From: Plasmodium brasilianum
Lineage: Eukaryota > Apicomplexa > Aconoidasida > Haemosporida > Plasmodiidae
Assembly (NCBI RefSeq): GCF_023973825.1
Contig: NC_090114.1
Span: forward strand, 248,001 to 312,000
Length of the DNA stretch: 64,000 nt
Direction of reading: 5' to 3'
In this document: in pieces, positions 3,001-58,252 of the stretch
How positions within the stretch are numbered: position 1 is the first letter of the stretch
Layout of the letters: each line of letters starts with the position of its first letter
Translations under genes and position numbers: made by a program
Notes under the pieces: model-generated
Seen by the model: only the letters and a program-made list of their open reading frames with translations
Databases searched by the model: none
What the model was told of the DNA's origin: nothing

Positions 3001-6000
3001 TACGACAAACTGTAACTTTTTAAATAATTAATTTATAAACATTCTATATGGAACTATTAATAATACGTAATAAATCAAGTGTTACTTATGTAATATAATT
3101 ATAAACCATACTTTGTGTTAAAATATTTATCTAATAATCTTATTTATCTATCTTAAAAAGTGATGTTATCGATATCTATCATAATACAGTAATATTATTG
3201 TCTATTTTATTTAGAACTAATAACTATCCCCTGAATTTTAAATGCATAGATTATTAATTCTACAATTTTCTTTTAAAATTAATAAAACTTTACATGCCTT
3301 TATTATTATTTCAGACTTAAAGCTTACTAATAAATTTAAAGTCCAAATTATTTAAAAAAAAACACTGTAAAAAAATAAAAATAATAAAAAAAATATAAAT
3401 ACTATTTAATTATATAAATTATAAAAACAAAAAATATCTTATAACATTTGAAATTAATTTGAATTGAAATATAAGCTAATATTGCCTTAAAAAGTTGCAA
3501 AAAGGAGTATGTACTTCTCACTAAAAAAACATAACAAAATAACGATATTACTAAATTCATTAGATAATAATATAAAAAAACTAAATAACAATTAAAAAGA
3601 TCAATATATGTAAAAAAAAAATATAATATAATGTGTATTGTCGCCAATTAAATGGTGACATCATCCCATGAACAAAAGCATTCAAATCGTTGTTTAAGTT
3701 TGAATGATATATCTCCCCAAAAAAAAATATATATTTAAAGGAACATATATCATGTTATCCCAAAAAAAAAAATTAGATATCATTAACAGTTATAATTTTT
3801 ATGACTTAAATATACATTAATACTTATTTTTTTTTTTTTTTTAAGTCAATAATATAGATATCATAAGACAATTCACGCTATAAATTATGTTAAAAAATAA
3901 AAAGAACAAAAAAAAAATCATATTTTAGCAGTAAAAATAATACATAAATTACACTTGAACAGAAAAATAAAAAGCGAAAACATTAAAAAATTAATTCCTA
4001 GAACATAACAAAATATAATATATTGAAAAAAAATATAATATAAAGTGTTATTATATAAATATATAAACGTTTAATATATTTATCCATTCTCATTTTAAAT
4101 TATCCTATAAATTGTCTTCAATAAAAAAATTAATAAATTTAATTCTTTTTATTCGAAGATAACAAAATAATAAGAGCACATTGATATATTTATTATAATT
4201 TTAAACTTTTTCTCCAATAAGTTACGATTACACTTTCAAAAAGCCATAGTAAATAAAATTTGATATATGTATTATATTAGAGCGTACACAGATAAATCAG
4301 AAAAATAAAAATTGGGTAATTTTACATTTTTCACTATTTGTTCTATAACAATATAAAAAGGTATGTTCTTACCTTTGACTATCTATATAAAAACATTATA
4401 TTAATCTGTAGATATATTATATATACATATTTTCACATACATTCATTAAAATTCACACATAATAAAAAATCATATGACATTTATTAGATAAATTAATAAT
4501 TTATTACATATCAAAATAAAATTTTTTGTTAATGTGATTTATTAAAAAGTGGGTATTCTACTTTTACTATTAATTCATAAGTATATTTGAATCATTTTTT
4601 ATTCGTTACAATTAAAAATGTTTTAAAATTTTATGTTAAAATAATATAATAAAAACAATTGCATAACACCAATGTTCACTTTATTTGTGAAAAATAAACA
4701 AAATGAAATAAATAAAGATAAAAGAACAAATAAATTATTTTAATAGTATACATATTTACCATATAAAACATAAAATATAAAATTATATATTTCACATATA
4801 TATATACAACTTTAAAATAATAAATATCCTCTTTGCTGAAAAACTTAAAGTCCCGTATAAAGAAAATAACCATTATAATTTTCTTAATTACTTATCATAC
4901 TTTTCTTACCATTAGGACATTTGTCATTTTGTGTAGCAAATTAACAAAAATATATATGCATACGAATTATACTAATGCTTTTAATAAGCATATTGTAAGC
5001 ATAGTTTTTTTCATATACTATGGTTACCATTGATGTATTTTAATGTTAAAACAAAAATATTTAAATTACCTTATTTACTTTAATCTTTCCCTTTTCTTAC
5101 CTTTCATTCATTTTTTCTTAATAACCACTTTTTTACTTAATATCACGGTTGTCATTAATGTGTTTCCATTTATTTATACTTCATATATTTGTTTTTGCAA
5201 AATATATTTTCATATATATATCAAAATGAAAATCTGAAATATTTATGAAATGTTTACAAAAATATAGTGTCTTTATTTTCACTCTAAAAACATGAAATTC
5301 ATTTTTTTTTTTCAGTTTACACATAATAATTTTTTTTCTACTACAATAATATATTATTTAACTAATACCTATTAACATGTAAAAGATGACTGTGAGGTTT
5401 TTTATATATGTCAATTATATTTTATTAATATTTCATTAAAATATATTTTATTATAAAGCAAAATATTTGAATATATGAATGAGAATAAACTTATTAAAGA
5501 ATAAAAATTCAAAGATTATATACTTTCCATAAGAATAAAGTGATTAAATACCATTTATACCATGTCTTTTCCTTGTTGCTTATATGCTTGTGTTCATTTA
5601 GAAGTATATATAAACATTTAAATTTATTAATTTTTATTTAGATTCAGCTTATAATGGTGTATATTTCCAATTAGTGCTATAATTAATAACTATTTAAATA
5701 TTAAATAAATTTATTAAATACTATGTTTGTTATATGTATTTTTTAGATTTATCGTATAATATGGTATTTTTTTTATTATATTATTATGTTCCTTACTTTT
5801 TTTTTTAATGAGATATATACACATTATTTATCATTTCATTAACATTATTAATTAATTTAAATGTTACTTGTCAATAATTTATCATTTTTTATTTAAGTCT
5901 TAAGAATTTTTATCACAAATATAATTAATTCTTTTAAAGGCATTTTGCATATATTTAGACCATATTTTAATTTCATTAAAATGACAATTATTTTACAATA

Positions 6001-7289
6001 TTCATTATTCTGTTTAGACTCTTTTTTTATCATTTCTTGTACATACCTGTCGGATAAGCAAATATATTTAATAACAATAATAAAAATAATAATATATAAT
6101 TTTTATAATATTAATAGTAATAGTATCTAATCATTTGTCCTTATACAATTATAAATATTTATTTACCCTTTCTTGCTCTTTATGTTGCAAATAATAATGT
6201 ATTATATTAATGATATACTTATTTTTCAAAACTCATAACCTTTATTCATTTCATAACATTCCAGTAACTGTTGGATTATATACGTAATGTATTACTACAA
6301 ATTATTGCATTCATACAAAATAGTTATATTTAAGAAGAAAAAAATGTTAAACATATAATATGACAATCTAAAAAATTTTCGTCAACCTTAAGAGGGACCA
6401 CTCACTATTTTACCCTGGATTCTAAAATAGGGTGAAACGTATTATTTTTTTTTTTATATAATGAATAGGAAAAATATGAAGATACATTATTTTTATTAAC
6501 ATATATTTATCCCTATCTTTTATTTGTTTTTCCTCGAATATGAATTTAATCCTTTATATTAAAGAATTTGTACTTGTAAATGTAAATATATATATATATG
6601 TATATCACTAAAATTCGTTTCCAACGATCTTAAAAAAATACATAATAATAATAGCAATAAATTATATATAAATACTTGTTAATTCTAGTATTCAGTAAAG
6701 AACATACGTAAAAATATGATATTTTGATCATGTGAGATGGTGCATCCGTTTTAACTTATATATTTTATAAGGCAATAAATGTCCATGCTTTGTTAAAATG
6801 TGCTATGAATTTGTACCTATAATCTTTCGATAATCCAATTTTTTAACAAAATAAGGTGCATAATACAAAACGAATATTAAACTTTTATACAACATTAACA
6901 GAATGCACCTATAAAAATGCTACATTTTGACTTTCGTAGCATTGATTGCATATAATTGTAACTTATAAATACTCCACAAAAAATTAAATAATAAGGAATT
7001 TAATCTTCAAACATATAAATAACTAAAAAGAGCATATATATACACCATATTTAATTTCTCCATTACTTCTATGAAATGATGTTTCTTGTATCCATTTACA
7101 AAACAAGAAATAAAAAATTTTAATTTTTTAAAATCTCTAAAATTATTAAATTGTAATATAAATTCGTAAGCAAAATAAAAAAAATAAAAACACCTAAAAT
7201 ATATATTATAGGTTAATATTTTTGTAAATATACGTATAGATACAATATTTTAAATTTTCGAAAACGTATATATGAATTCAGAGTCATAC
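1..7289. other. Subtelomeric gene desert
   Basis: About 7.3 kb of very AT-rich DNA with no supportable gene on either strand. The longer open frames here (for example 3402-3647 on the minus strand and 5043-5237 on the plus strand) are rich in Phe, Tyr, Ile and Leu, as expected from translating A/T-rich DNA, and have no family motif. I saw no telomere-type heptamer array, so the chromosome end itself is not in the window. The only local oddity is a small GC-richer inverted repeat near 6403-6434, listed separately. Confidence 0.6.
6403..6434. repeat. Short inverted repeat in a GC-richer patch
   Basis: The arms CTATTTTA (6405-6412) and TAAAATAG (6423-6430) flank a 10-nt loop. The stem can be extended by two pairs (CA with TG) across a two-base bulge. 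An alternative pairing is ACCCT (6412-6416) with AGGGT (6429-6433). The surrounding 50 bases are noticeably richer in G and C than the desert around them. It could be a hairpin in a transcript, a protein site or chance. No gene lies within 800 bases. Confidence 0.3.
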
Positions 7290-7610
7290 TCATTTTTGTT
7301 TATAAAGAGAACTTACTAATGATACATAACATAATAAAATAAAAGGATCTATTAAGTTGAGAATTAAGAATAAAATCATAATTATATAGAAATTTCTTTT
7401 AGTACTTCTTATTTTACTTTCTATTTTTATTTTTTTCGGTAAATTTTTCTTAAAATTGTAGGTAATTTTATTCTTTTTTAAATATCCATAAGTATAAGCG
7501 AAAAAAAGGAAAATATTTAAAAAAAATACATCGGAAATTAATATATTTCTTTTTTTATTGAAGATATATAGAATATGTATATGATACCAACTAATTTTTT
7601 TATTATTCAT
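7290..7610 (-). pseudogene. Possible decayed exported-protein fragment
   Basis: An open frame of 106 codons with a lysine-rich middle and a hydrophobic stretch near its C-terminus, followed by a short polar tail. That resembles the tail of small exported two-TM Plasmodium proteins. Upstream, around 7690-7770 on the same strand, short coding-like pieces occur in frame with stop codons. No PEXEL motif or signal exon can be joined to it. The family is not recognisable, and the frame could be a chance product of AT-rich DNA. Treat it as a weak hint of a dead fam-l/fam-m-like gene. Confidence 0.22.
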
Positions 7611-9161
7611 TTTTAGAATGAATATATATATATATCAGAATTTACTACTGGAAAAATAAAGAATACAATAAATATATTCTATCTATTCATTTCTTATCTT
7701 CATTCTCTTCTAACTTTTCTAAATTGTACGTTTTCATTTGTTTCATACATTTTATATGTCATATACAAGAACATTCAACACTAATATCATTACTATATAT
7801 TGCTTTTGTTAAAGGCATTTCCTGTTTACACACTATAAAGATTATATCAATAAAATATATTATAAAAATATAAAAACGCTAAACCCATGGTAAGGATAAT
7901 AAATTTTTAGAACAACATTTTCATTCGTTGCTCTACTCTCAAAATACTCAATTAAATGATAAAAAGTTTTATAATATAAAAACCTTGCTCACGTGGAGCA
8001 TATCAACAGTCTATTTATAATAATTCCAGAGATAAAAACAGGTATTATATTATGTATATATATGCGTGTTACATTCATTTTTACGTTCTAAGGAAAAATG
8101 TAAATAATTCTTAATTTTCTTTTTTAAACATTTGTTTCATTATTATACTATTATATATTTTTCCTTATTTTTGTACATATGTTTTTCTGTTAGGATTATT
8201 ATTATAATTTTCATAAAAATAAAGCTTGACGAGATAAAAGATTCAGTTTTAATGATATATTTTTAAACAACTTATTAGATTTCATATTGTTATTTATATT
8301 AAATTATATAATACCCCATAATTTTATATTAAATTACATTATATTAATAAATATTTTAAAATATATGTATAATAAAACTACACTATTTTTTAGTTTATAT
8401 TATATAAAAATTTTTGTATCAACTAAATAATTTATTATTATTATTAACGAAACTTTCATTACTTTTTTTACCCTAAAAAATATTATATTTATAGTAAATG
8501 TTAATATAAATGGATATTAAAATAATAAAATTATAAAATTATTCCGTTCTTGTATAATTTTTTCTTATTTTATAGATTTTATCCCAAAAAATAATATAAA
8601 AACCTTCTTATATATATGATAAAAGCGTTAAATAATTTTTAAAAATTTATATTATTTTAATTTATAGAAAAATAAATCTTAAAAAAAAAATATATATAAT
8701 TTTCCTTTTTTTTATTTATTCAAATAAAATAAAATATGATATAATATTTTACTTATATTTTTACATAAAAACATTAACAAAAAACCTCCTTGTTAACATA
8801 TTTATAAATATATGTATAAAAAAGTATATATTTATATCATAAATTTTTTCGAATACAAATTTATTTGAAGAACATTCTGAATTTTTAAAAATTACGTGTA
8901 TAATGTTATATAATTATTTAATATTTATTCAAGTCACTTTTTACGAAAATTTGTTATAATTAATAGTATTCATCTAAGCAAAAAAAAAAAAAAAAATAAT
9001 ATATATATATATGCCTAAATTCCACTCTAATGAAAAAGAATTAAAGAAAAAAAATATATAAAGCATATCTATTTTTGAACATACTATAGAATAATCTTAA
9101 TCTAGATAAAAATCTTGTTATTACTCAAAGTTTTCCTTGATAAGTTTAAAAAATTTTCAGA

Positions 9162-12665: not shown

Positions 12666-13755
12666 TTAGAAAAGTGAATTGCAACCAGGATAATAAGCAA
12701 CATTTAGTTTTCTTCTCTGCAAATTCGATTTTTCATGTTCAGATCATTCTTCTATTAATTCATATCTATCTGTATCATCTGAATTACTACTAGTTAACTT
12801 TTTCGTTACTAAATTAGTACGTATCCAAGATGCAAGAGTAGTAAACTATTATATAAGTGATATATATAAGATGTTGGTATAATAAATAATTCTGTAATTA
12901 TTTTTTTTTTTTTAAAGAAAAATAAATATTACTAAATTAAATTATTTATATTTATAAGTTTTATTTGTAAATACCTTATATAAAATGAACCAAATAAAAA
13001 ACATTCCTGCCAGGGAAATAGCAACCGATATGACAATTTGAGAAAAATTAAAGATAGACTGATTTTCTGTTGTTTCTGATCCATTTATCAATACAGAATG
13101 TACTTCATCCATATTCCTGAATTCTATAGCACTTCCCTTTTTTTACACATCAAAGTAGGTAACTTTTTACTAAAACAATCAGAAACATGATTTCTAAATT
13201 CAGCACAATATTTTTCAGGGTTACGAAAATTACAATTATGAAGCATTTTATCATATATTTTAACAGCTTCTTCAAGGTAATTTTCAAATACACTATAACA
13301 CAAATTCCCATTCATACTTAGGTTTTGCTTAATGGTTTCGTAATATTTACAATAATTATGAACAATCTTCATTTTTTTAAATTCTTCCTCTTTAACATCT
13401 CCCAAAAATTTACACCTGCAATTCTTAGACGAACCAAATTTACTTGAAAAAACATTTAGTATATTAATAACCCTTGAAACTGATTTTCCATTTTTTAACT
13501 AATCAAATAACATTTTTACTATCCATTAGTATACATAATTACACTGCTCCTTACAAGCATTATCTTCACTACTAAAAAAGTTAATGAAACAAAAAGCCTT
13601 CAAAATATCATCTTCAACACTTTTGATATCAATATAACTATGTAATTGAGATTTTGCTGAAAGTGCTTTATCCTCTTAATGATTGTAATATTCATGAATG
13701 ATTTATATTTTGTACTATAATAAATTTTTGAAGGCAACGATTCTAAAAAACCTTC
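12666..13755 (-). pseudogene. pir family pseudogene
   Basis: Read on the minus strand, fragments of a pir protein appear in order: an N-terminal LPSKIYYST piece after an acceptor at about 13756; a shifted frame with EYYN; a cysteine segment NACKEQCNYVY; the central block 13124-13405 with NYCKYYETIK and CYSVFENYLEEA; then in another frame a TM segment (about 13000-13050) ending in LYK before a GT donor. A final exon carries FTTLASWIRTN and the C-terminal NVAYYPG typical of the family. It is broken by a frameshift near 13715, stops in the N-terminal third (two TAA and one TAG), a frameshift near 13120, and a TGA in the last exon. pir genes encode large variant families of exported or surface proteins. 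This copy is dead, though fragments could serve as donor sequence in recombination. Confidence 0.85.
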
Positions 13756-27220: not shown

Positions 27221-30200
27221 CTAATTGTAAACTTTTGGATCCTGATTTTGCTCCTTATCTAATAAAGAAATAAAAAAAAGAAGATAACAATAAATAAAAA
27301 AATATAATATTTTTTATATAATTTTTTTTTTTTTTAAAAAGCATTTTTGTCTTTTAATTTATTATTACATATCACTGGTAACTTAAAATCAGTCCCTCCA
27401 TTTTGTATAAATTCGGTGAACGTAGCGTCTTCACATCTACATTGATGAGAAAATATAAAAATAATGCTTTATTCATATATTTCATTAATTCTTTTTACTC
27501 AAAAATATTTTTATTTTTAAAATGAAATATAAATGAACATAATATTTCATTTATTCCTTTTTTTCTTACGAATTATCTGTAGTTTTTAATGCAAAAACTA
27601 CGAATAAAATTACCAGAAATGCACCTCCTCCAGCAAAATAAGATAATTCTGTAAAAAAAAAAAAAAAAAGTAAATTAATAAAAATATTCATAGTGTTCTT
27701 AAAATAAAATTGGTAATAACTTATATATTTATTTTTTATTCATTTAATATATACATATATATACGCACTTGAAAAATTATATTTTTTTGAATTTTCGAAT
27801 AATGTAATAGAATATGCACTTTTTACACAAGCATAATGTTCACTCGAATGTTTAGGATAAAAATTTAAACAATAATCTGAAAATGATTTAAAAAATTTTC
27901 TTTTATCATCATTAAGATTAGATTTTGATGATAAGCTATCCTCAATATATTTACACTGATCTGATGAAAAATATTTAAGACACATTTCATTTCCTGATAA
28001 ATTTAAGTTTCCATCATTTACAGTTTTAAAGTTTGCATTTTCATATTCTTTTAAATAAAAATTTCCAGAATTCATATTATTCTTACTATCTAAATTATAA
28101 TTGTTTGAACCTTTCGTATCATTATTTTCACCATCAATTTGATCTCCTTGTTTTTTCTCTGTTTTCAATGCTTCTCCTTCTAATGATTGTGAATGTACAT
28201 TATTTAAAGAACTTTCCTCTTCAGTAGAAGCATGAAGTGTGTTGAAATCATGTATTTGAACGTTTTTTTCTTTATCTGAATTGATCTCTGTTGAACTTGC
28301 AGTTTCGGCTTTTGATACATCATTCAATTTATCTATGTTTTCTGAAATTCCAGTTTCGGTAGTTAGAGATGTCACATCATTGTGTTTAATATTAGACAAT
28401 GAATCTAGAACCTCAATAGATTCAAGATCTTCCCTGTTTTCGTCCCTATTACCAGTACTAGCGTCACTCTGATCATTTATAACACCATCCCTATCAGTTC
28501 TAAGATCGTGTTCGTTACGTTCCTTATCAAAACTACCAATAACTTCATGGCTCAGTACACCATTTAATGCACCCGTAGTAATTTCTCTAGAACTTGGAAT
28601 TTCTTGTAAATTTCCAGGAACATTAGAGATGTCACTGTTATCTGTTCTAATATTTTCACTTCTAGCTTTTCTACTATGATCATCTGTACTTTGACCACTT
28701 TAACTATTATCTCCAACTTCTTTACTGTTTCCACTCTGAGAGATATCTCTCTGTTGATCCATACCACTATTATGACTATTAGCACTGTCACATGGTTTTT
28801 TATGATCATTACATAAGGATCTTTCACCATCACTACCACTTTTTTCAAGAGTATTATATGAAAGGCTAAGGTTTGAACTTACGTCTCTATCGCCTTCGGC
28901 ACTTTTATCAATTTTCTTCTCAGGTTTACCTCTATCTCCCGTATTCCCAGAAACAGCTTCACTGTCCAGAGATTTTGAAGAAGCACTTAAATAGTTCAAA
29001 CTTTCAGTATCACCATTACCAATATTGTCATTTGCGTCATCAGAACTACTACTAATCCTAGCTCGGTCGTCACGTGGGAGACTTCTATAACTATTATCTT
29101 GAGCATTTCTTCCACTATCTGAAGTATTCAATACCCCTCTCGTATCTATAGGTTCAAGTCTTATACCTTCATGTTTTACTTCTTCTACCTTTCCTGGAGC
29201 AGGTTTTGCCATAATAGATGCTTTACAATTACAACGATTATTATATTCATTATCTCCTATATTTATTTCTTTTTCAAAAGATATCCTATCAAATCCTTTG
29301 TATTCTTTCGTTATTAAATCAATAGCAGTCCCTCCGTGTCCAATTTTGACATACTTAACCCTATTGAATTTGTCTGTTAGTATATCCAATTGCTTTTTTT
29401 TTTCTCTTATCCATGATTCATACTCTGAACATTTTTTTTTACATTCTGGTTCAACATTGCATCTATCTTTACCAATAGAAACATTTTTTTCCTTACATAC
29501 AGATTTTATATTATCAAAGTGTTTAGATATTTCATCTCCAAAGTCCCTAGCCCATTCTAGGAGCCATCGCTGAAACTGCGGAATTTCCTCAAAAATAAAA
29601 TCCTTTGAACATTGCATATTTTCTGTATTCCTTAATTTCTTATTAGCTGTAGACATTAACTCATTCCAAAGAGCATTTTTGTTCTCTTTCCACCATTTCT
29701 CGCGCTCCCTTTTTGCATTTTCATCGCTGCCAAATATTTATTACAAGATTTTCTCTACTATCATAGAATGACCATGCCCCTTTATATCGGTTCCTTTAAT
29801 AACATTTCCAATATCAGCAAAATCATATTTTAAATCATTACAAAATTCTTTATAGTTAAGTCGGTTATCCTCTTTCCATTTCTGCAATAATAAGTATGCT
29901 TCTGTGTTTAGTGAAGCAAGAAGCTGTTTTTTTAGATCTGTTACATCATTTCCATTCCGTACATCCTTTATTTTATGAATACACAATTGTACTCTCCTAT
30001 CAGGAACACATAACCCTTTATCATTAATGTCCTGTATATTGCAAATCCATCTTCCATGTTTTCTCTTTAAGATACATCCAATAATTAAAGTGCAATCAAA
30101 AAAAGAATATTTTACAGTATGATTCATATACATTTTATGATTATCAACTCCAGAAGTAAAACGACCTATAGAGCTAGTTATATTGGTACTTATGCTAGAT

Positions 30201-30841
30201 CCAGTATCATCTACATTAGTATTAGTTGAAGCATTTGAAGAAAATTCGCTATTAAATATTTCATCATAGCCTTTTTAGACACTAATTTTACCATTTTTTC
30301 TGCTACTACCTCCTTTATGTACATTTAAATTTGCAACACCTTCATAATCTATATAATTTCCCTTGTCCACAACTTTTACCTTACCTTCAACAAATGCCTC
30401 CAAACTTTCACTACTTCCTCCAAGATTATTTTCATTATTAGATATTATTTCTCCTATATTTCCTTCTAATTTTTTTTTTGTCATCTGTTATAGTTTCTTT
30501 AGTTTCATGGAATGCTTTTTTTGTTTTATTTCCTACATCTCTTTCACTCGCATCTTTGTTGTGTTCCTTAGATGAGGTGCTACTAACTTCTTCTATGCAT
30601 TCATTTTTGTTTTTTTGGAAACTACTATTTTTCTTTTTTAATAACTCATTTTTTGCATGAATATATGAGAAAAACTATTTGATTCATAATTATTTACACT
30701 CTCTAACTTTTTATTTAATGAATCTAAAGATTCTTTTCCTTTATAATGATTTATTTGATTAATAAATGATTCGATTTTACATTGTATACAATGCAACAAA
30801 TATAATTTTATGAAAAAAAAAATATATTTTTTTGTTTTCAT
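27221..30841 (-). pseudogene. Erythrocyte-binding-like (EBL/DBP) gene, broken
   Basis: EBL proteins are micronemal type I membrane ligands that bind red-cell receptors during invasion. Here the start codon at 30841 opens a signal peptide (KKYIFFFIKLYLLHC) and a charged linker. A single Duffy-binding-like domain spans about 30110-29200, with CVPDRRVQLC, FCNDLKYDFADIGNVIKGTD, EREKWWKENK, IPQFQRWLLEWARDF and CSEYESW. A Ser/Asp/Asn-rich middle follows. The C-terminal cysteine domain (about 27980-27790) has YFSSDQCKYI and HYACVK. The 3' end keeps the family's exon pattern: TM exon 27648-27570 (YFAGGGAFLVILFVV), tail exons 27436-27369 and 27258-27221, all in phase. Damage: frameshifts near 30663 (A6) and 30476 (A10) that cancel, a TAA at 30275-30277, tandem TAA at 29738-29743 inside the DBL domain, and a TAA at 28700-28702. 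A multi-hit pseudogene, or a bad assembly at the homopolymers; the stops argue for true decay. Confidence 0.9.
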
Positions 30842-33386: not shown

Positions 33387-34524
33387 ATGAACCCAAAAGT
33401 GTTAGAACAAGTATATTTGCAATTTCTATTAAAAGCATTAATTATAACAGAGCTTCATTTAAATGTTGTCTAATATATTTAAAATATCATTAAAACTGAT
33501 TCTTAAAAATACGAATTTATGGATTTATATCTCTACATAGTTTAATTTTAATATTTATTTTTACTTATATTATTACATTATCCCCGTTTGAAGGATTTAC
33601 CTTTATATAAGCTTTACGAGGAATTTGATAGTTATAAAAATGGTTATACGAAGGACAATAGCATTTGTACAAATTTCATTAATGACAAATATCTTAAATC
33701 ACATGATTTAACCAAGCTTTGCCAACATCTTTCTGCAGTGTTATCATCATTCAACAATATCAAACAAACGCATACTGAAGTTTCATCTAACATTTGCAAT
33801 CATTTAAACATATGGTTATATAACAAATTAACAAATCTGGTTTATGATCCTGCCACTCTTGATAATGTTCACTATGCATTTATGGAGGTTTTTAAATACA
33901 AAAAAGTATTCAAAGATTGTAATTATCTAAATTATAATAAATGTAATAAGGATGAGTTTAACATAATAAAAAAGTTTCATGATTATTCTGAAAATTTTGT
34001 TGGCATTCAAAATAAAATTAAAGAGAATGGTTATTCTGTGATTAAGAATTATTGCTCATACATCGCAGAATCTGTTAATTTTTATAACGACATTGTTTTA
34101 AAGTATGCTAATTCTGATACAGATTATATTTATGATAGTGAATTGAAAACTTTTAGAGATAATTTTAAAAAAATATATAAGGCTACATTGAGTTGTAATT
34201 CTCATATACCTCATTTACAACCTGCTTATAATGATAATATTGAATTATCACATGTCTTTAATTATAATACGTTAAATAGTGAGCCTGTGAATTTAAGAAG
34301 TGTAGCCAAAAATCTTTTAACATTTTTTGGAATATTTTTAATTTTTTTTTGTGTATATAAGGTTAATAAATATTCCAATTAAAAATACATGTATTTTTGG
34401 AACATTTTCAATTACATATTTAAATAAAAAAACTACTGTTATATAGCTTTATTATATTAAGTGAAAATATATTTTTTTTATGCGTGTATATTCTTTTTAT
34501 GAGTATATATTTTTGTATGTATAC

Positions 34525-38893: not shown

Positions 38894-41074
38894 ATGTTAT
38901 GGAATAAAAGAAAATTGAAAGATGGGAACTTTAGGAAGTTCGTCTTTTCTAAGCTTCATACTGTAACACTTTTTTTTGTGTTGTATCTTTTATTATTAGT
39001 AAGAAATAAAATTAAATTTTTTAAATTAAAAAAATAAATGTATATATATATATGTATATTTTTTTTATTCATTTTAAACCCACAAATCATATAAAATTTT
39101 ATATTTACCCATATTTTTAACTTTAACAAATAATTAATTACTACTTAGGATATACACCTGTCAAAATGTAACAATGTCTTTGGATATCAATCTTGTAAGA
39201 CATTCTCTCGTAATTTAGCCCACAAAAGCAATGATGAAAGTAGAAAAATGCAAACAGGATGGCAAGGTATAAGGGTGAAAGAGGATGAAAAAAATAAAGA
39301 AATAGTAAAGTGCAATATGCATAAAAAAAAACGTGCATCTATTGCGCACGAAATGCTTGAAAAAAAAAAATTAATAATGGAGGAGAAAATGAAAAAAAAT
39401 TGGCGTGCAGATAAGGAAAGAAAAACGAATGAAAATGAGCATACAACAATGAGGACAGAAATAAGTAATAAAAATCAAAAAATTACAAGGGCAACAAAAG
39501 AAGATACAATAGAGGGAAAAAATCAAGAATTAATGGAGAGGAAAAAAGGAGAAACGATGCAAGAAAAAAAGCAAGGAACAATAGAGGGTAAATCAGAAAA
39601 AATGATGCAAGAAGAAAAGCAAGATGTAATGAAAACCAGAAAAGTAAAAGAGGAAGAAGACGATGAGGAAGAAGACGATGAGGAAGAAGACGAAGAGGAA
39701 GAAGACGATGAGGAAGAGGAAGATGATGAGGAAGAAGAAGATGATGAAACGATGGAAGATAAAATTCGTGAAAAAAAGGAAGTAGGGCAGAATTGCTTGA
39801 CTGTAAATAAGCAGGAAACAATGGGAAAAAAAGAAGATAAGATTGTGGAAAAAATGGAAGAAACGTTGAAGAAGAAAAAGGAAGAACATATTGGAGAAAG
39901 AAAAGAGGAAACTATCGAGGAAAAGACTCCTGAAAAAAAGGAAGAAACAATTGAAGAAAAAGAGCAAGAAGTAATGTGGGAAGAAGTGATGGAAAGAATA
40001 GGAATAAAAATGGATGATATAAAAGAAAAAACAATAAAAAAAAAAAAAGAAGAAACAATGGAAGAAAACAAAGAAGAAACGATGAAAGAAAAAGAAGAAA
40101 TAATGGAAGAAAAAAAAGAAGAAATAATGGAGGGAAAAAAAGAAGAAACAGTAGAAGAGAGAAAGGAAGAAAACGCGGAAGAGAAAAAGGAAGAAAACGT
40201 GGAAGAGAAAAAGGAAGAAAATGTGGACGAGAAAAAGGAAGAAAACGTGGAAGAGAAAAAGGAAGAAAACGTGAAAGAGAAAAAGGAAGAAAACGTAGAA
40301 GAGAAAAAAGAAGAAACTATAGAGGAGAAAAAACCTGAAAAAAAGGAAAAAACAGTGAGTAAAAATAAAGAGGATACCTCGTTAAGAAAATTCCTTCGTA
40401 ATATAGATGAAAGTAAGTTAGATGATATAATAGATAAGATATTGGGGAAAATGAATGACAAAATGACAGAGAAGAATGAAATACAAACAAATAATGGAAA
40501 TTATCTAAGAATGTTATCAAAGTATAATGTTCCTGATATTTCACAAGATACCGATGATGGTGGTTGTTATGTTATAGATAATAATTTGAAGGGTGGATCT
40601 GTTGCAATAAATGATCTAACTAATAAGATGTTCAGTTATCCTTATTTTTCTAATAATTTTTCATCTCCAATGCATTTAAACGACAAAAAATTGTGTAGAA
40701 CGATAATTACATTAAGTAAAGATACAGCAAAGGAAGATTTATTTCCTATTTGGAAACTATTTTGTTGGAATAAGAGAAATAAATATGTTATTATATTAGA
40801 TGAACTAATGAGTGAATATGATGGATTAAGAAGAAACTATAGCAAGTATGAACATTTAACAAAACGTCGTTGGAAAAAATGTTATAAAAAATTTAAAAAA
40901 ATTGTAAATGCGGAAGAAGCTTCTCTTAACAAGGAATTTATTTCTTTGATTAATAACAAATCAGTATCATTAGATCAATGTAAAGAATTTTTGCTTAAAA
41001 GTATAAAAACAGCTAATAAATTCCTTGAAAATACCAAAGTTTACTGCAGAAATATTTTACAAAAAGATATATAG
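38894..41074 (+). CDS. PHIST-domain exported protein with acidic and K/E-rich repeats
   Basis: Exon 1 (38894-38998) encodes 35 residues with a recessed hydrophobic core (VTLFFVLYLLLL) after a charged N-terminus, the usual export-type signal. It ends at a GTAAGA donor. Exon 2 (39149-41074) follows an acceptor TTAG in phase 0, giving about 676 residues. A PEXEL-like R-N-L-A-H (R56, L58) sits 20 residues in. The usual E/Q/D at position 5 is His. Residues about 200-240 are almost pure Glu/Asp (39651-39749). About 40020-40340 is K/E-rich, including 24-bp units encoding KKEENVEE. The C-terminus (about residues 560-676) is a PHIST-type helical domain with LFPIWKLFCW, then ILDELMSEYDGLRRNY, W.K.YKKF and a final CKEFL..I helix. 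PHIST proteins act in host-cell remodelling, often at the membrane skeleton. The charged repeats recall KAHRP/MESA-like binding regions, which is inference. Confidence 0.88.
40152..40320 (+). repeat. 24-bp in-frame tandem repeat
   Basis: About seven tandem copies of a 24-base unit (consensus GAAGAGAAAAAGGAAGAAAA plus CGTG) within the PHIST gene, encoding EEKKEENV. Copies differ by single bases that mostly keep the charge pattern. The copy number is likely to vary between isolates. Confidence 0.85.
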
Positions 41075-55946: not shown

Positions 55947-56293
55947 AATATTACATCGCAATAAAAAAAAAAAATTTTTTTCTTTATTGTTGCTGGTTGC
56001 ATAAACAGATCCTTATCAATCTTATTGTTTTTAAATTCCTATTCTTAATCTCATTTTTAAATTTATTTTTATTTTTTTATATATTTTATTTTTTAAATTT
56101 TAATTATATTTTATTTCTTATTTAGTATTCATTTCTTCTTTTTTTTTTTTATGTCTTTAATTTTTTTTTTCCTGTTTTTATATTTTCCTATTTTTAGTTA
56201 ATTTTTTCCGTAATATTTTTTTTTTGTATGTTATATTAATATCTTAACATTTTCATTTCTTTTATTATCATCAACTTGTTACTTTTTGAAAAG

Positions 56294-58252
56294 ATGAATT
56301 TTTACTTGTCACTATTTTTTATTCTGTCTTCGTTGCTGTATTATACATATGCTATAGGTCTTAAGGGTAGCAGTAGCAAAAATAATGCATTGAATACGGT
56401 TTGGAATGGTAAAAATAAAAAAGACCTATTAAATGGACGTAAATCTTCGTCATATATAAAATCACACCGTCATAATCCTAAAGAGTTTGAATGTGAATGC
56501 AAATGTAAATGCAGTAATGACACCGAAGGAAACTGCTCCGAAGGATGTCATGGACATGGACCTGAGGGAGGAATTGAAACAGGAGGAAACGAAACAGAAG
56601 GGGGAAACGAAACAGAAGGTGGAAACGAAACAGAAGGTGGAAACGAAACAGAAGGTGGAAACGAAACAGAAGGTGGAAACGAAACAGAAGGTGGAAACGA
56701 AACGGAGGGAGGGCAAGGAACAGAAGGTGGACCTACAACAGGTGGAAGCCATGGTAGAAAACCTCCAAGAGAAATTTTAGAGGAATATAAAAAAAGAAAA
56801 CAAGGTTTAATAGCCGGGTATTACGGCTCATGGAATAGTCAAGGTGATAGAGCAAAACACATGACTGATTCCAATCCAATGGTGTCCATACTTTACATTG
56901 CTTTTGCTCGTATAGATATTCTTTATGATGTGAATAGGCCATTTAATGGGAAACAAAAGTTCTTATTAAGAAAACACGGTTTAGAATATGAAACTTATGC
57001 AGTGATGCTTAATGAAATGAGACGTATAAGGAAAGCTCGCCCAGATATTATTTTACTTTTATCATTAGGAGGAGAAACATATATGATAGACATTAAAAAA
57101 GATATTGAATATGTAGACAGTATAGCAAAGTTTGTAAGTGACTTTGATTTAGACGGTGTAGATATTGATTGGGAACCACATGGTAGTTTTAACAATTTAA
57201 ATGAGTTAGAGTATTCCAATTATTATATAAAATTAGTTAACTTAATAAGAAGTAATATTCCAAAAGAAAAATTACTTTCTATATCTGGATCATCAAATGC
57301 AGCATTATCATGTGTATCAGTTGGTGAAACATTCTGTAAAGACGAAGGATCAACATATAATACTAAATATTTATCTGAGCAAATGGGCAAAAATGAAGAA
57401 TTATACAAAGCAGCAACTATGTTATCTTCAGGAACTTTCGTTAATATCTTTAACACAGCAAAGGACAATATCGATCTTGTATTTATTCAAACATATAATT
57501 TAGACACAACAAATCCAAGTATTATGCTAGATATGTATTTATCCCATCTATATTTTGGATTAAAATACGATATCACAGTTTTATTAGGCTTTTCTTTGGA
57601 GCATAATAGAGGTGGATTCAGCCCAGATAATAAAGAATTAGTAGAATTAGTAGCAAAAAGAATACATGATGAAAATCATAAGCATAACAGAGCGGACGGA
57701 GCAGGAATATGGCACTTATTTTTGAAAGAACAATTACCAAATGCAACATATGACATAGAAACATTCATTACAAATTTCTGGAAACATTTAAATCCTGATG
57801 TTCACCCTCCAAAGGATGTAGAAATAACACAAAATCCAGATGATTGTAGTACTATAGATGAATACATTTCAGGACTTGTTATACCTAAAGCAGGAGAATA
57901 TTACAAACACAATGGAGCTATATGGAAAACTGCATACTATTCAACTAATGCACCTGGTGTTGATAGATATGAATGGGTTTTGGTCAAAACCTGCTATGAA
58001 AAAACATGCAATGGTAAAGCAACTCATTATTATAACACGAATTATGATAATGGATCTATTGTTATTTGGAAAGGAGAACCATACACTATTAAATGGTGGC
58101 AATCAGGACCTCCCGAAGGTGCAGCCTTAGAGGCATATGAAAAAATGGATGCTTCTGAATGCCCAGGATTAGAAGAATGGAACAAAAAATACCCTCATAA
58201 GTCAATTGAAGAAGATGTCCCATATGAACAAGAACAAGACGTATCTATATAA
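56294..58252 (+). CDS. CHT1: Ookinete chitinase, GH18, long form with chitin-binding domain
   Basis: Secreted endochitinase that lets the ookinete cross the chitin-containing peritrophic matrix of the mosquito midgut. It has 652 residues in one exon. The ATG at 56294 directly opens a signal peptide (residues 1-20, YLSLFFILSSLLYYTYA). An N-terminal region has a cysteine/charge-rich segment (ECECKCKC, residues 66-73) and seven copies of NETEGG (99-140). The GH18 barrel runs about 172-500, with YYGSWNSQGDR at its start, LLLSLGGE as the second conserved strand, and the catalytic D287-G-V-D-I-D-W-E294, in which E294 is the acid/base. The C-terminal region (about 520-628) has paired W/Y-rich stretches, ending with VIWKGEPYTIKWWQSGPP, matching a CBM5/12-like chitin-binding module. 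This is the long form known from P. gallinaceum and P. vivax, unlike the short P. falciparum CHT1 that lacks the binding domain. All catalytic residues are present. Confidence 0.96.
   Translation: MNFYLSLFFILSSLLYYTYAIGLKGSSSKNNALNTVWNGKNKKDLLNGRKSSSYIKSHRHNPKEFECECKCKCSNDTEGNCSEGCHGHGPEGGIETGGNETEGGNETEGGNETEGGNETEGGNETEGGNETEGGNETEGGQGTEGGPTTGGSHGRKPPREILEEYKKRKQGLIAGYYGSWNSQGDRAKHMTDSNPMVSILYIAFARIDILYDVNRPFNGKQKFLLRKHGLEYETYAVMLNEMRRIRKARPDIILLLSLGGETYMIDIKKDIEYVDSIAKFVSDFDLDGVDIDWEPHGSFNNLNELEYSNYYIKLVNLIRSNIPKEKLLSISGSSNAALSCVSVGETFCKDEGSTYNTKYLSEQMGKNEELYKAATMLSSGTFVNIFNTAKDNIDLVFIQTYNLDTTNPSIMLDMYLSHLYFGLKYDITVLLGFSLEHNRGGFSPDNKELVELVAKRIHDENHKHNRADGAGIWHLFLKEQLPNATYDIETFITNFWKHLNPDVHPPKDVEITQNPDDCSTIDEYISGLVIPKAGEYYKHNGAIWKTAYYSTNAPGVDRYEWVLVKTCYEKTCNGKATHYYNTNYDNGSIVIWKGEPYTIKWWQSGPPEGAALEAYEKMDASECPGLEEWNKKYPHKSIEEDVPYEQEQDVSI
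56588..56713 (+). repeat. 18-bp in-frame tandem repeat in chitinase
   Basis: Seven copies of an 18-base unit (AACGAAACAGAAGGTGGA) encode NETEGG. The first and last copies carry single-base changes; the middle five are identical. Each unit contains an N-E-T sequon, so the linker could be a dense glycosylation site if the parasite's minimal N-glycosylation reaches it. The identity of the middle copies suggests recent expansion. Confidence 0.95.

What the first reader, a model, noticed from the sequence alone, without database searches (positions are those of the whole stretch)
27221..30841. EBL/DBP invasion-ligand gene that is recognisable end to end but broken by at least five lesions
Seen: signal peptide, one DBL domain, C-terminal cysteine domain, TM exon and two tail exons, all in the expected order, with TAA codons at 30275, 29738-29743 (tandem, inside the DBL domain) and 28700. 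Known: EBL proteins mediate junction formation and their repertoire helps set host range and receptor choice. Inference: this lineage lost a whole EBL ligand recently enough that every domain is still readable.
Basis: partly seen in the sequence, partly recalled or inferred. Interest (0 to 1): 0.82.

Follow-up and report, generated by a model that had tools for sequence, protein, structure and literature searches.

The report
Broken red-cell invasion gene, quartan malaria
This stretch of a quartan malaria parasite genome (most likely Plasmodium brasilianum, the monkey form of P. malariae) holds a recognisable but disabled gene for a red-blood-cell invasion protein, and the one other gene of that kind found in the assembly ends before its membrane anchor.

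Summary
On the minus strand, 30841-27221 is a single-DBL EBL gene: signal-like start, DBL with all 12 conserved cysteine columns, low-complexity middle, region VI, a TM exon and two tail exons with splice motifs. It is broken by four TAA codons at three places (a tandem pair inside the DBL) and two inferred 5' frame breaks. Over 832 codons its frame holds 3 stops; the other five frames hold 27-155. The genome matches the published P. brasilianum assembly in size and contig number. By identity, best-match score and probable chromosome the gene is the orthologue of P. vivax DBP2/EBP; trees did not resolve it. The only other DBL gene found (contig C22; 99.6% identical to P. malariae 'DBP2') is open for 850 codons but stops before region VI and TM, as does the P. 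malariae record. MAEBL is open. So no complete membrane-anchored DBL ligand was found in this assembly, which fits a 2025 report of no EBL/DBP orthologue in P. malariae. Best reading: an EBL pseudogene, unconstrained for roughly 0.013-0.024 substitutions per site (range 0.003-0.06), in a lineage that may have lost canonical EBL invasion. A known kind (compare PfEBA165).

The parts
30668..30841 (-). start codon, signal-like hydrophobic stretch and first 5' coding piece (open down to 30638 in this frame)
   Evidence: ATG checked; 71% DNA identity over 215 bases to the 5' end of the C22 paralogue; weak match to PvDBP2 1-62, E 0.02
30655..30680 (-). frame break 1 (approximate place)
   Evidence: coding frame changes; frame change against the open paralogue in the alignment of 30627-30841
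30489..30674 (-). second 5' coding piece
   Evidence: open frame 30674-30438; 62 codons, no stop
30470..30492 (-). frame break 2 (approximate place, at a homopolymer run)
   Evidence: coding frame passes to 30487-30275; could be a sequencing error, not independently confirmed
30278..30487 (-). third 5' coding piece
   Evidence: open frame, 70 codons
30275..30277 (-). in-frame TAA
29744..30274 (-). N-terminal part of the DBL domain (homology begins near 30160)
   Evidence: PF05424 E 1.2e-13; 50.4% identity to PvDBP2 over 139; 5 of 5 near-invariant cysteine columns kept
29738..29743 (-). tandem in-frame TAA TAA inside the DBL domain, in register with two residues of PvDBP2
   Evidence: flanking pieces end and resume at PvDBP2 298 and 301
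28703..29737 (-). C-terminal part of the DBL domain and start of the low-complexity middle
   Evidence: PDB matches, best E 2.6e-32; 46.7% to PvDBP2 over 180; 7 of 7 near-invariant cysteine columns kept
28700..28702 (-). in-frame TAA in the low-complexity middle
27769..28699 (-). rest of the middle and region VI (PF11556 at 28006-27812); exon end proposed at a GT donor
   Evidence: Cys-Cys pair of region VI absent
27570..27648 (-). transmembrane exon between AG and GT
27376..27436 (-). first cytoplasmic-tail exon (3' border approximate)
   Evidence: PvDBP2 805-836 against 27432-27337, 37.5%, E 0.002; splice motifs
27221..27258 (-). last tail exon with terminal TAG
   Evidence: AG acceptor and TAG; exon read by eye, no significant protein match of its own

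Best explanation
A pseudogene of a DBP2/EBP-type EBL invasion ligand in the quartan lineage (P. brasilianum/P. malariae). The ancestor encoded a micronemal type I membrane protein whose DBL domain bound a red-cell receptor (inferred from the family). Here three nonsense sites, two inferred frame breaks and loss of a region VI cysteine pair stop any full protein; a product from the original start would end before the DBL. Shown: gene anatomy, stop codons, single copy in this assembly, greatest identity to PvDBP2 among the sequences compared. Inferred: former function, fixation in the species, and that merozoites now invade through RBPs, MAEBL or other ligands.
For: Stops and domains in order. 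The tandem stops fit exactly between PvDBP2 298 and 301, so an intron could not remove them without removing conserved DBL sequence. PvDBP2 scores best in this genome against this locus (318 bits, 4 TAA inside) rather than the C22 gene (270 bits); identity 50/47% to PvDBP2, 44/39% to C22 and 35/34% to PvDBP1 for the two DBL halves. The locus is on contig C1; contig numbers agree with P. vivax chromosomes in the cases checked (MSP1 on C7, AMA1 and MAEBL on C9; the P. vivax chromosomes of those three are recalled), and PvDBP2 is on chromosome 1 (PMC6130868 passages). Only two PF05424 places at E 0.001 in 31.4 Mb. Open frames of 1789 and 1307 codons on the same contig and 1790 in MAEBL argue against a generally poor assembly. 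Size and contig count match the hybrid Illumina/PacBio, Pilon-polished P. brasilianum assembly, 31.4 Mb and 14+29 (PMC9671904 passages).
Against: No reads, second isolate or RNA were available. Frame break 2 sits in a homopolymer and frame break 1 in a short run. The DBL-half trees gave 0 starred branches, so DBP2 orthology rests on identity, scores and probable chromosome. The cysteine columns of the DBL and the splice motifs remain, which could also fit a very young or polymorphic null.
Confidence: 0.88

Rival explanations
1. Assembly or sequencing error: the gene is intact and the lesions are artefacts.
For: The two 5' frame breaks are at homopolymer runs, where long reads err.
Against: Four stop codons at three places need several independent base errors; the published assembly was hybrid and Pilon-polished (PMC9671904 passages); other frames examined are open over 1307, 1789 and 1790 codons; the C22 gene agrees with the P. 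malariae record at 99.6% over 819 residues, including its end.
Confidence: 0.06
2. A polymorphic null: the lesions are private to this isolate and other quartan parasites keep a working gene.
For: 12 of 12 DBL cysteine columns kept; no second isolate checked.
Against: Three or four nonsense events imply 0.013-0.024 substitutions per site without constraint (95% ranges together 0.003-0.06), against a P. malariae nucleotide diversity of 0.00032 (PMC5326575 table). No P. malariae protein for this locus was found, although those searches also failed to return well-known DBPs, so this is weak.
Confidence: 0.1
3. A functional truncated or alternatively spliced gene (a secreted fragment, or introns removing the stops).
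For: Splice motifs at the 3' exons are kept; long open pieces remain.
Against: An intron over the tandem stops would delete conserved DBL residues, since homology is continuous on both sides. The frame from the ATG ends at 30638 and the TAA at 30277-30275 also precedes the DBL.
Confidence: 0.04

Closest known systems
P. vivax DBP2/EBP (P0003, 845 aa)
   Same: Same order of parts, one DBL, region VI, TM and tail; 50.4% and 46.7% identity in the two DBL halves; probably the same chromosome (1)
   Different: The P. vivax record is an open protein; this locus has four stop codons, two inferred frame breaks and lacks the region VI Cys-Cys pair
P. malariae 'Duffy binding protein 2' (P0001) and its copy on C22 here
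   Same: EBL family, one DBL, similar 5' end (71% DNA over 215 bases)
   Different: Open for 819-850 codons but stops before region VI, TM and tail; 43.5/38.7% identity to the window gene; extra copy of a late DBL segment
PfEBA165 (P. falciparum) pseudogene
   Same: An EBL ligand disabled in one lineage while the domains remain readable; linked by its authors to host range (PMC6778099, abstract and section 6 read)
   Different: Two DBL domains, frameshifts; the 5' frameshift was in all 2517 isolates examined there and ape relatives were intact. No such data here
P. ovale wallikeri DBP pseudogene
   Same: A DBP-family gene stated to be a pseudogene in a human malaria parasite (PMC8704803 passages)
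   Different: Other lineage; sequence not compared here
MAEBL
   Same: Region VI; 66% DNA identity over 27624-28005 and 70% over 27247-27381, the latter mostly intron; weak matches of the PvDBP2 tail at similar places (E 0.02)
   Different: Has AMA1-like domains instead of a DBL; open 1790-codon frame here

Membership tests
EBL/DBP family | Duffy-binding (DBL) domain | tested here: met
   PF05424 E 1.2e-13 in the N-terminal piece; PDB DBL matches for both pieces
EBL/DBP family | 12 conserved DBL cysteines | tested here: met
   5 of 5 and 7 of 7 near-invariant cysteine columns kept
EBL/DBP family | C-terminal cysteine region VI | tested here: inconclusive
   PF11556 E 6.1e-8, but the Cys-Cys pair present in PvDBP2, PyEBL and MAEBL is missing
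EBL/DBP family | Signal peptide | tested here: inconclusive
   Hydrophobic stretch (12-residue mean 1.9); PvDBP2 1-62 match only E 0.02; no signal-peptide predictor available
EBL/DBP family | TM exon and short tail exons | tested here: met
   Hydropathy 2.2 and splice motifs; first tail exon E 0.002; last tail exon by eye
EBL/DBP family | Continuous coding frame | tested here: not met
   Four TAA codons and two inferred frame breaks
EBL/DBP family | Micronemal expression and receptor binding | not testable with these tools
   No RNA or protein data
DBP2/EBP orthologue group | Closest to PvDBP2 and best match of PvDBP2 in the genome | tested here: met
   Highest identity to PvDBP2 among 6 (N half) and 7 (C half) sequences compared; best-scoring place of PvDBP2
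DBP2/EBP orthologue group | Supported clade with PvDBP2 | tested here: inconclusive
   7- and 8-row trees of the two DBL halves, 0 starred branches
DBP2/EBP orthologue group | Same chromosome as PvDBP2 | tested here: inconclusive
   C1 taken as chromosome 1 from contig order; MSP1 on C7, AMA1 and MAEBL on C9 fit. Neighbouring genes not matched

The most novel reading that the evidence does not exclude
The quartan parasites have no complete EBL ligand at all: DBP2/EBP is a pseudogene and the remaining DBL gene has lost its region VI and membrane anchor, so merozoite attachment runs without the EBL arm that other primate malaria parasites use, through RBPs, MAEBL or unknown ligands.
Probability: 0.45. 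Interest if true: 0.65.

Novelty: new member of a known kind. Interest (0 to 1): 0.45.

Why it matters
EBL ligands help set red-cell receptor choice and host range. A dead DBP2/EBP and an anchor-less second DBL gene would give a history to the report that no EBL orthologue is found in P. malariae (PMC11735006): the ligands were present and decayed. It makes the order and timing of loss testable against P. malariae isolates and the ape P. malariae-like parasites, and bears on how a parasite that infects both humans and New World monkeys enters cells.

Tried and rejected
Introns as an explanation of the tandem stops: rejected, because the PvDBP2 alignment is continuous on both sides with exactly two residues between. 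A hidden intact copy: not found at the sensitivity used. Searches of the whole assembly gave: PF05424, 2 places, this locus and C22; the C-terminal DBL piece, 7 matches, of which this locus 1, C22 2 and four weak ones on C10, C2, C1 and C43 at E 0.007-0.075, not followed up; PvDBP2, 7 matches, this locus 2, C22 3, and two weak ones on C11 and C23 at E 0.04 and 0.12; locus DNA, 11 matches, itself 1, C22 3, C9 (MAEBL) 2 and five short ones; PmDBP2, C22 and this locus only. Orthology by tree: not resolved. Protein-database search for a P. malariae counterpart: nothing for the middle piece among 660 candidates; with the C22 protein only P. malariae DBP2 and P. yoelii EBL, and with its DBL region P. 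malariae DBP2 and two P. vivax proteins. These searches did not return well-known DBPs, so their silence is weak. Neighbouring genes as chromosome markers: Pfam named only two pir-type frames, a GH18 chitinase and a helicase-like frame among 10 frames scanned, besides one sub-threshold hit; not enough for synteny. In the first dating script one 5' piece was read in a wrong frame; one search repeats it in the right frame and its numbers are used.

Full report
WHAT WAS CHECKED. The minus strand of 27221-30841 was read directly. The long frames between them were searched apart. The 30274-29741 piece carries PF05424 Duffy_binding (E 1.2e-13) and the 28699-27740 piece PF11556 EBA-175_VI (E 6.1e-8); the middle piece has no Pfam match at 0.01 but matches 34 distinct PDB sequences at 0.001, first a Duffy binding protein (5x6n, E 2.6e-32) and otherwise Duffy receptors, EBA-140/175, DBLMSP2 and PfEMP1. 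The N-terminal piece matches 30 PDB sequences of the same families.

LESIONS. The tandem TAA pair lies exactly where two residues of P. vivax DBP2 would be: the piece before it aligns up to residue 298, the piece after it from 301. The upstream coding sequence passes through three open frames (30847-30638, 30674-30438, 30487-30275). The first switch is backed by a frame change against the open paralogue on contig C22; the second rests on a homopolymer only and could be an error. I add one lesion that is not a stop: the Cys-Cys pair of region VI, present in PvDBP2, P. yoelii EBL and MAEBL (3 of 3 compared), is absent.

MORE THAN CHANCE. Over 27779-30274 the gene's frame has 3 stops in 832 codons (the tandem pair and 28702-28700; the fourth TAA lies just outside this span). 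The other five frames have 27 to 155, and 2000 mononucleotide shuffles have a mean of 76 and a minimum of 49. GC is 0.325 in 28001-30000 and 0.157-0.306 in the other 2-kb steps of the window. GC by codon position in the pieces resembles that of open genes, except in the short signal piece.

WHERE IT IS. The window is 248001-312000 of contig C1 (1,570,935 bases) in an assembly of 31,374,054 bases in 43 contigs. The published P. brasilianum genome is 31.4 Mb with 14 chromosomes and 29 unplaced contigs besides two organelle genomes, assembled from Illumina and PacBio reads and polished with Pilon (PMC9671904, passages). The C22 gene is 99.6% identical over 819 residues to P. malariae 'duffy binding protein 2'. 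The species name is therefore an inference, but a strong one; P. malariae itself is reported at 33.6 Mb (PMC5326575, table).

WHICH EBL GENE. P. vivax DBP2 finds this locus best in the genome (318 bits over residues 63-684, plus region VI at 53 bits), ahead of C22 (270, 61 and 17 bits). Identity of the two DBL halves (N, C) is 50.4% (70 of 139) and 46.7% (84 of 180) to PvDBP2; 43.5% and 38.7% to P. malariae DBP2; 35.0% and 33.5% to the Duffy receptor of 4yfs (P. vivax DBP1; species recalled); 36.3% to the Duffy binding protein of 5x6n (C half only); 29.1% and 28.3% to P. yoelii EBL; 32.1% and 26.8% to EBA-175 F1; 27.4% and 35.4% to EBA-175 F2. The C22 gene is also nearest to PvDBP2 (47.9% and 40.7%), so identity alone does not say which of the two is the orthologue. 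The small trees left the gene unplaced, with 0 starred branches. PvDBP2 is on chromosome 1 and PvDBP1 on chromosome 6 (PMC6130868, passages). MSP1 falls on C7 and AMA1 and MAEBL on C9, which fits the P. vivax chromosomes as I recall them and suggests that C1 is chromosome 1; the two PF05424 places are on C1 and C22, none on C6.

THE OTHER EBL GENES. In six frames the assembly has two PF05424 places at E 0.001: this one and C22:5349-5771. Weaker hits elsewhere (E 0.007-0.12) were not followed up. The C22 gene is open for 854 codons from stop to stop with a PF05424 match and no PF11556 match within that frame, and a second copy of a late DBL segment. Downstream of its end, a PF11556 match of 34.3 bits, over the family cut-off, contains 1 TGA and 2 TAA; PvDBP2 has no tblastn match there at E 1, and P. 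yoelii EBL two short ones at E 0.13. P. malariae DBP2 differs at 3 of 819 residues and ends at the same one, so the end is not an error of this assembly alone. MAEBL is open over 1790 codons with AMA1-like and region VI domains. Hence no complete membrane-anchored DBL ligand was found in this assembly. Unassembled subtelomeric sequence could hold one.

AGE. Counting the ways in which the pieces could acquire a stop, three or four nonsense events correspond to 0.013-0.024 substitutions per site under three mutation biases, with 95% ranges together spanning 0.003-0.06. P. malariae nucleotide diversity is 0.00032 (PMC5326575, table). So I expect the lesions to be fixed and shared between P. malariae and P. 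brasilianum; this was not tested. Whether they predate the split from the ape P. malariae-like parasite cannot be told.

LITERATURE. A 2025 study states that database searches find no orthologue of the major EBL ligands nor of DBP in P. malariae (PMC11735006, passages and section 22); yet a P. malariae 'DBP2' record exists. A review counts three full-length and two pseudo RBPs in P. malariae (PMC8308728, passages). The P. malariae genome paper has 0 occurrences of DBP, Duffy and EBL in the held main text, and its table of pseudogenised core genes lists none (PMC5326575, passages and part 6 of section 2). The complete P. brasilianum paper has 0 occurrences of Duffy and DBP in its main text. Six searches listed 30 different papers by my count; I opened passages of 8 of them and saw no description of this locus. 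The locus may well be annotated as a pseudogene there.

VERDICT. An ordinary kind of thing, an EBL pseudogene, well supported; made more interesting by the truncated state of the only other DBL gene found. Genotyping in P. malariae and P. malariae-like isolates would decide the larger claim.

Noticed in passing
L006 (G000:C22:1-10000), 4038-6587 minus: The C22 'DBP2' gene is open through the DBL, carries a second copy of a late DBL segment, and stops before region VI and TM; region VI remains downstream with three stops.
   Followed up: yes
window 28006-27812: Region VI lacks the Cys-Cys pair present in PvDBP2, PyEBL and MAEBL, a likely mark of relaxed constraint.
   Followed up: partly
window 56240-58252 plus: Open 670-codon GH18 chitinase-like frame with a GGNETE repeat near its N terminus.
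   Followed up: no
window 13124-13498 minus and 33552-34382 plus: Two Plasmodium_Vir (pir) frames on either side of the locus, as expected near a subtelomere; the first is short and may be a fragment.
   Followed up: no
window 39149-41074 plus: Open 641-codon Glu/Lys-rich repeat frame in a purine-skewed stretch, no Pfam match at 0.01.
   Followed up: no
L030 (G000:C22:20001-30000), 7552-8788 plus: Two adjacent coiled-coil-like frames that look by eye like remains of a reticulocyte-binding protein; no convincing Pfam match.
   Followed up: partly
G000 C10:73611, C2:74854, C1:230231, C43:206942: Weak matches (E 0.007-0.075, 27-38% identity) of the C-terminal DBL piece elsewhere in the genome; chance or distant DBL-like segments.
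   Followed up: no
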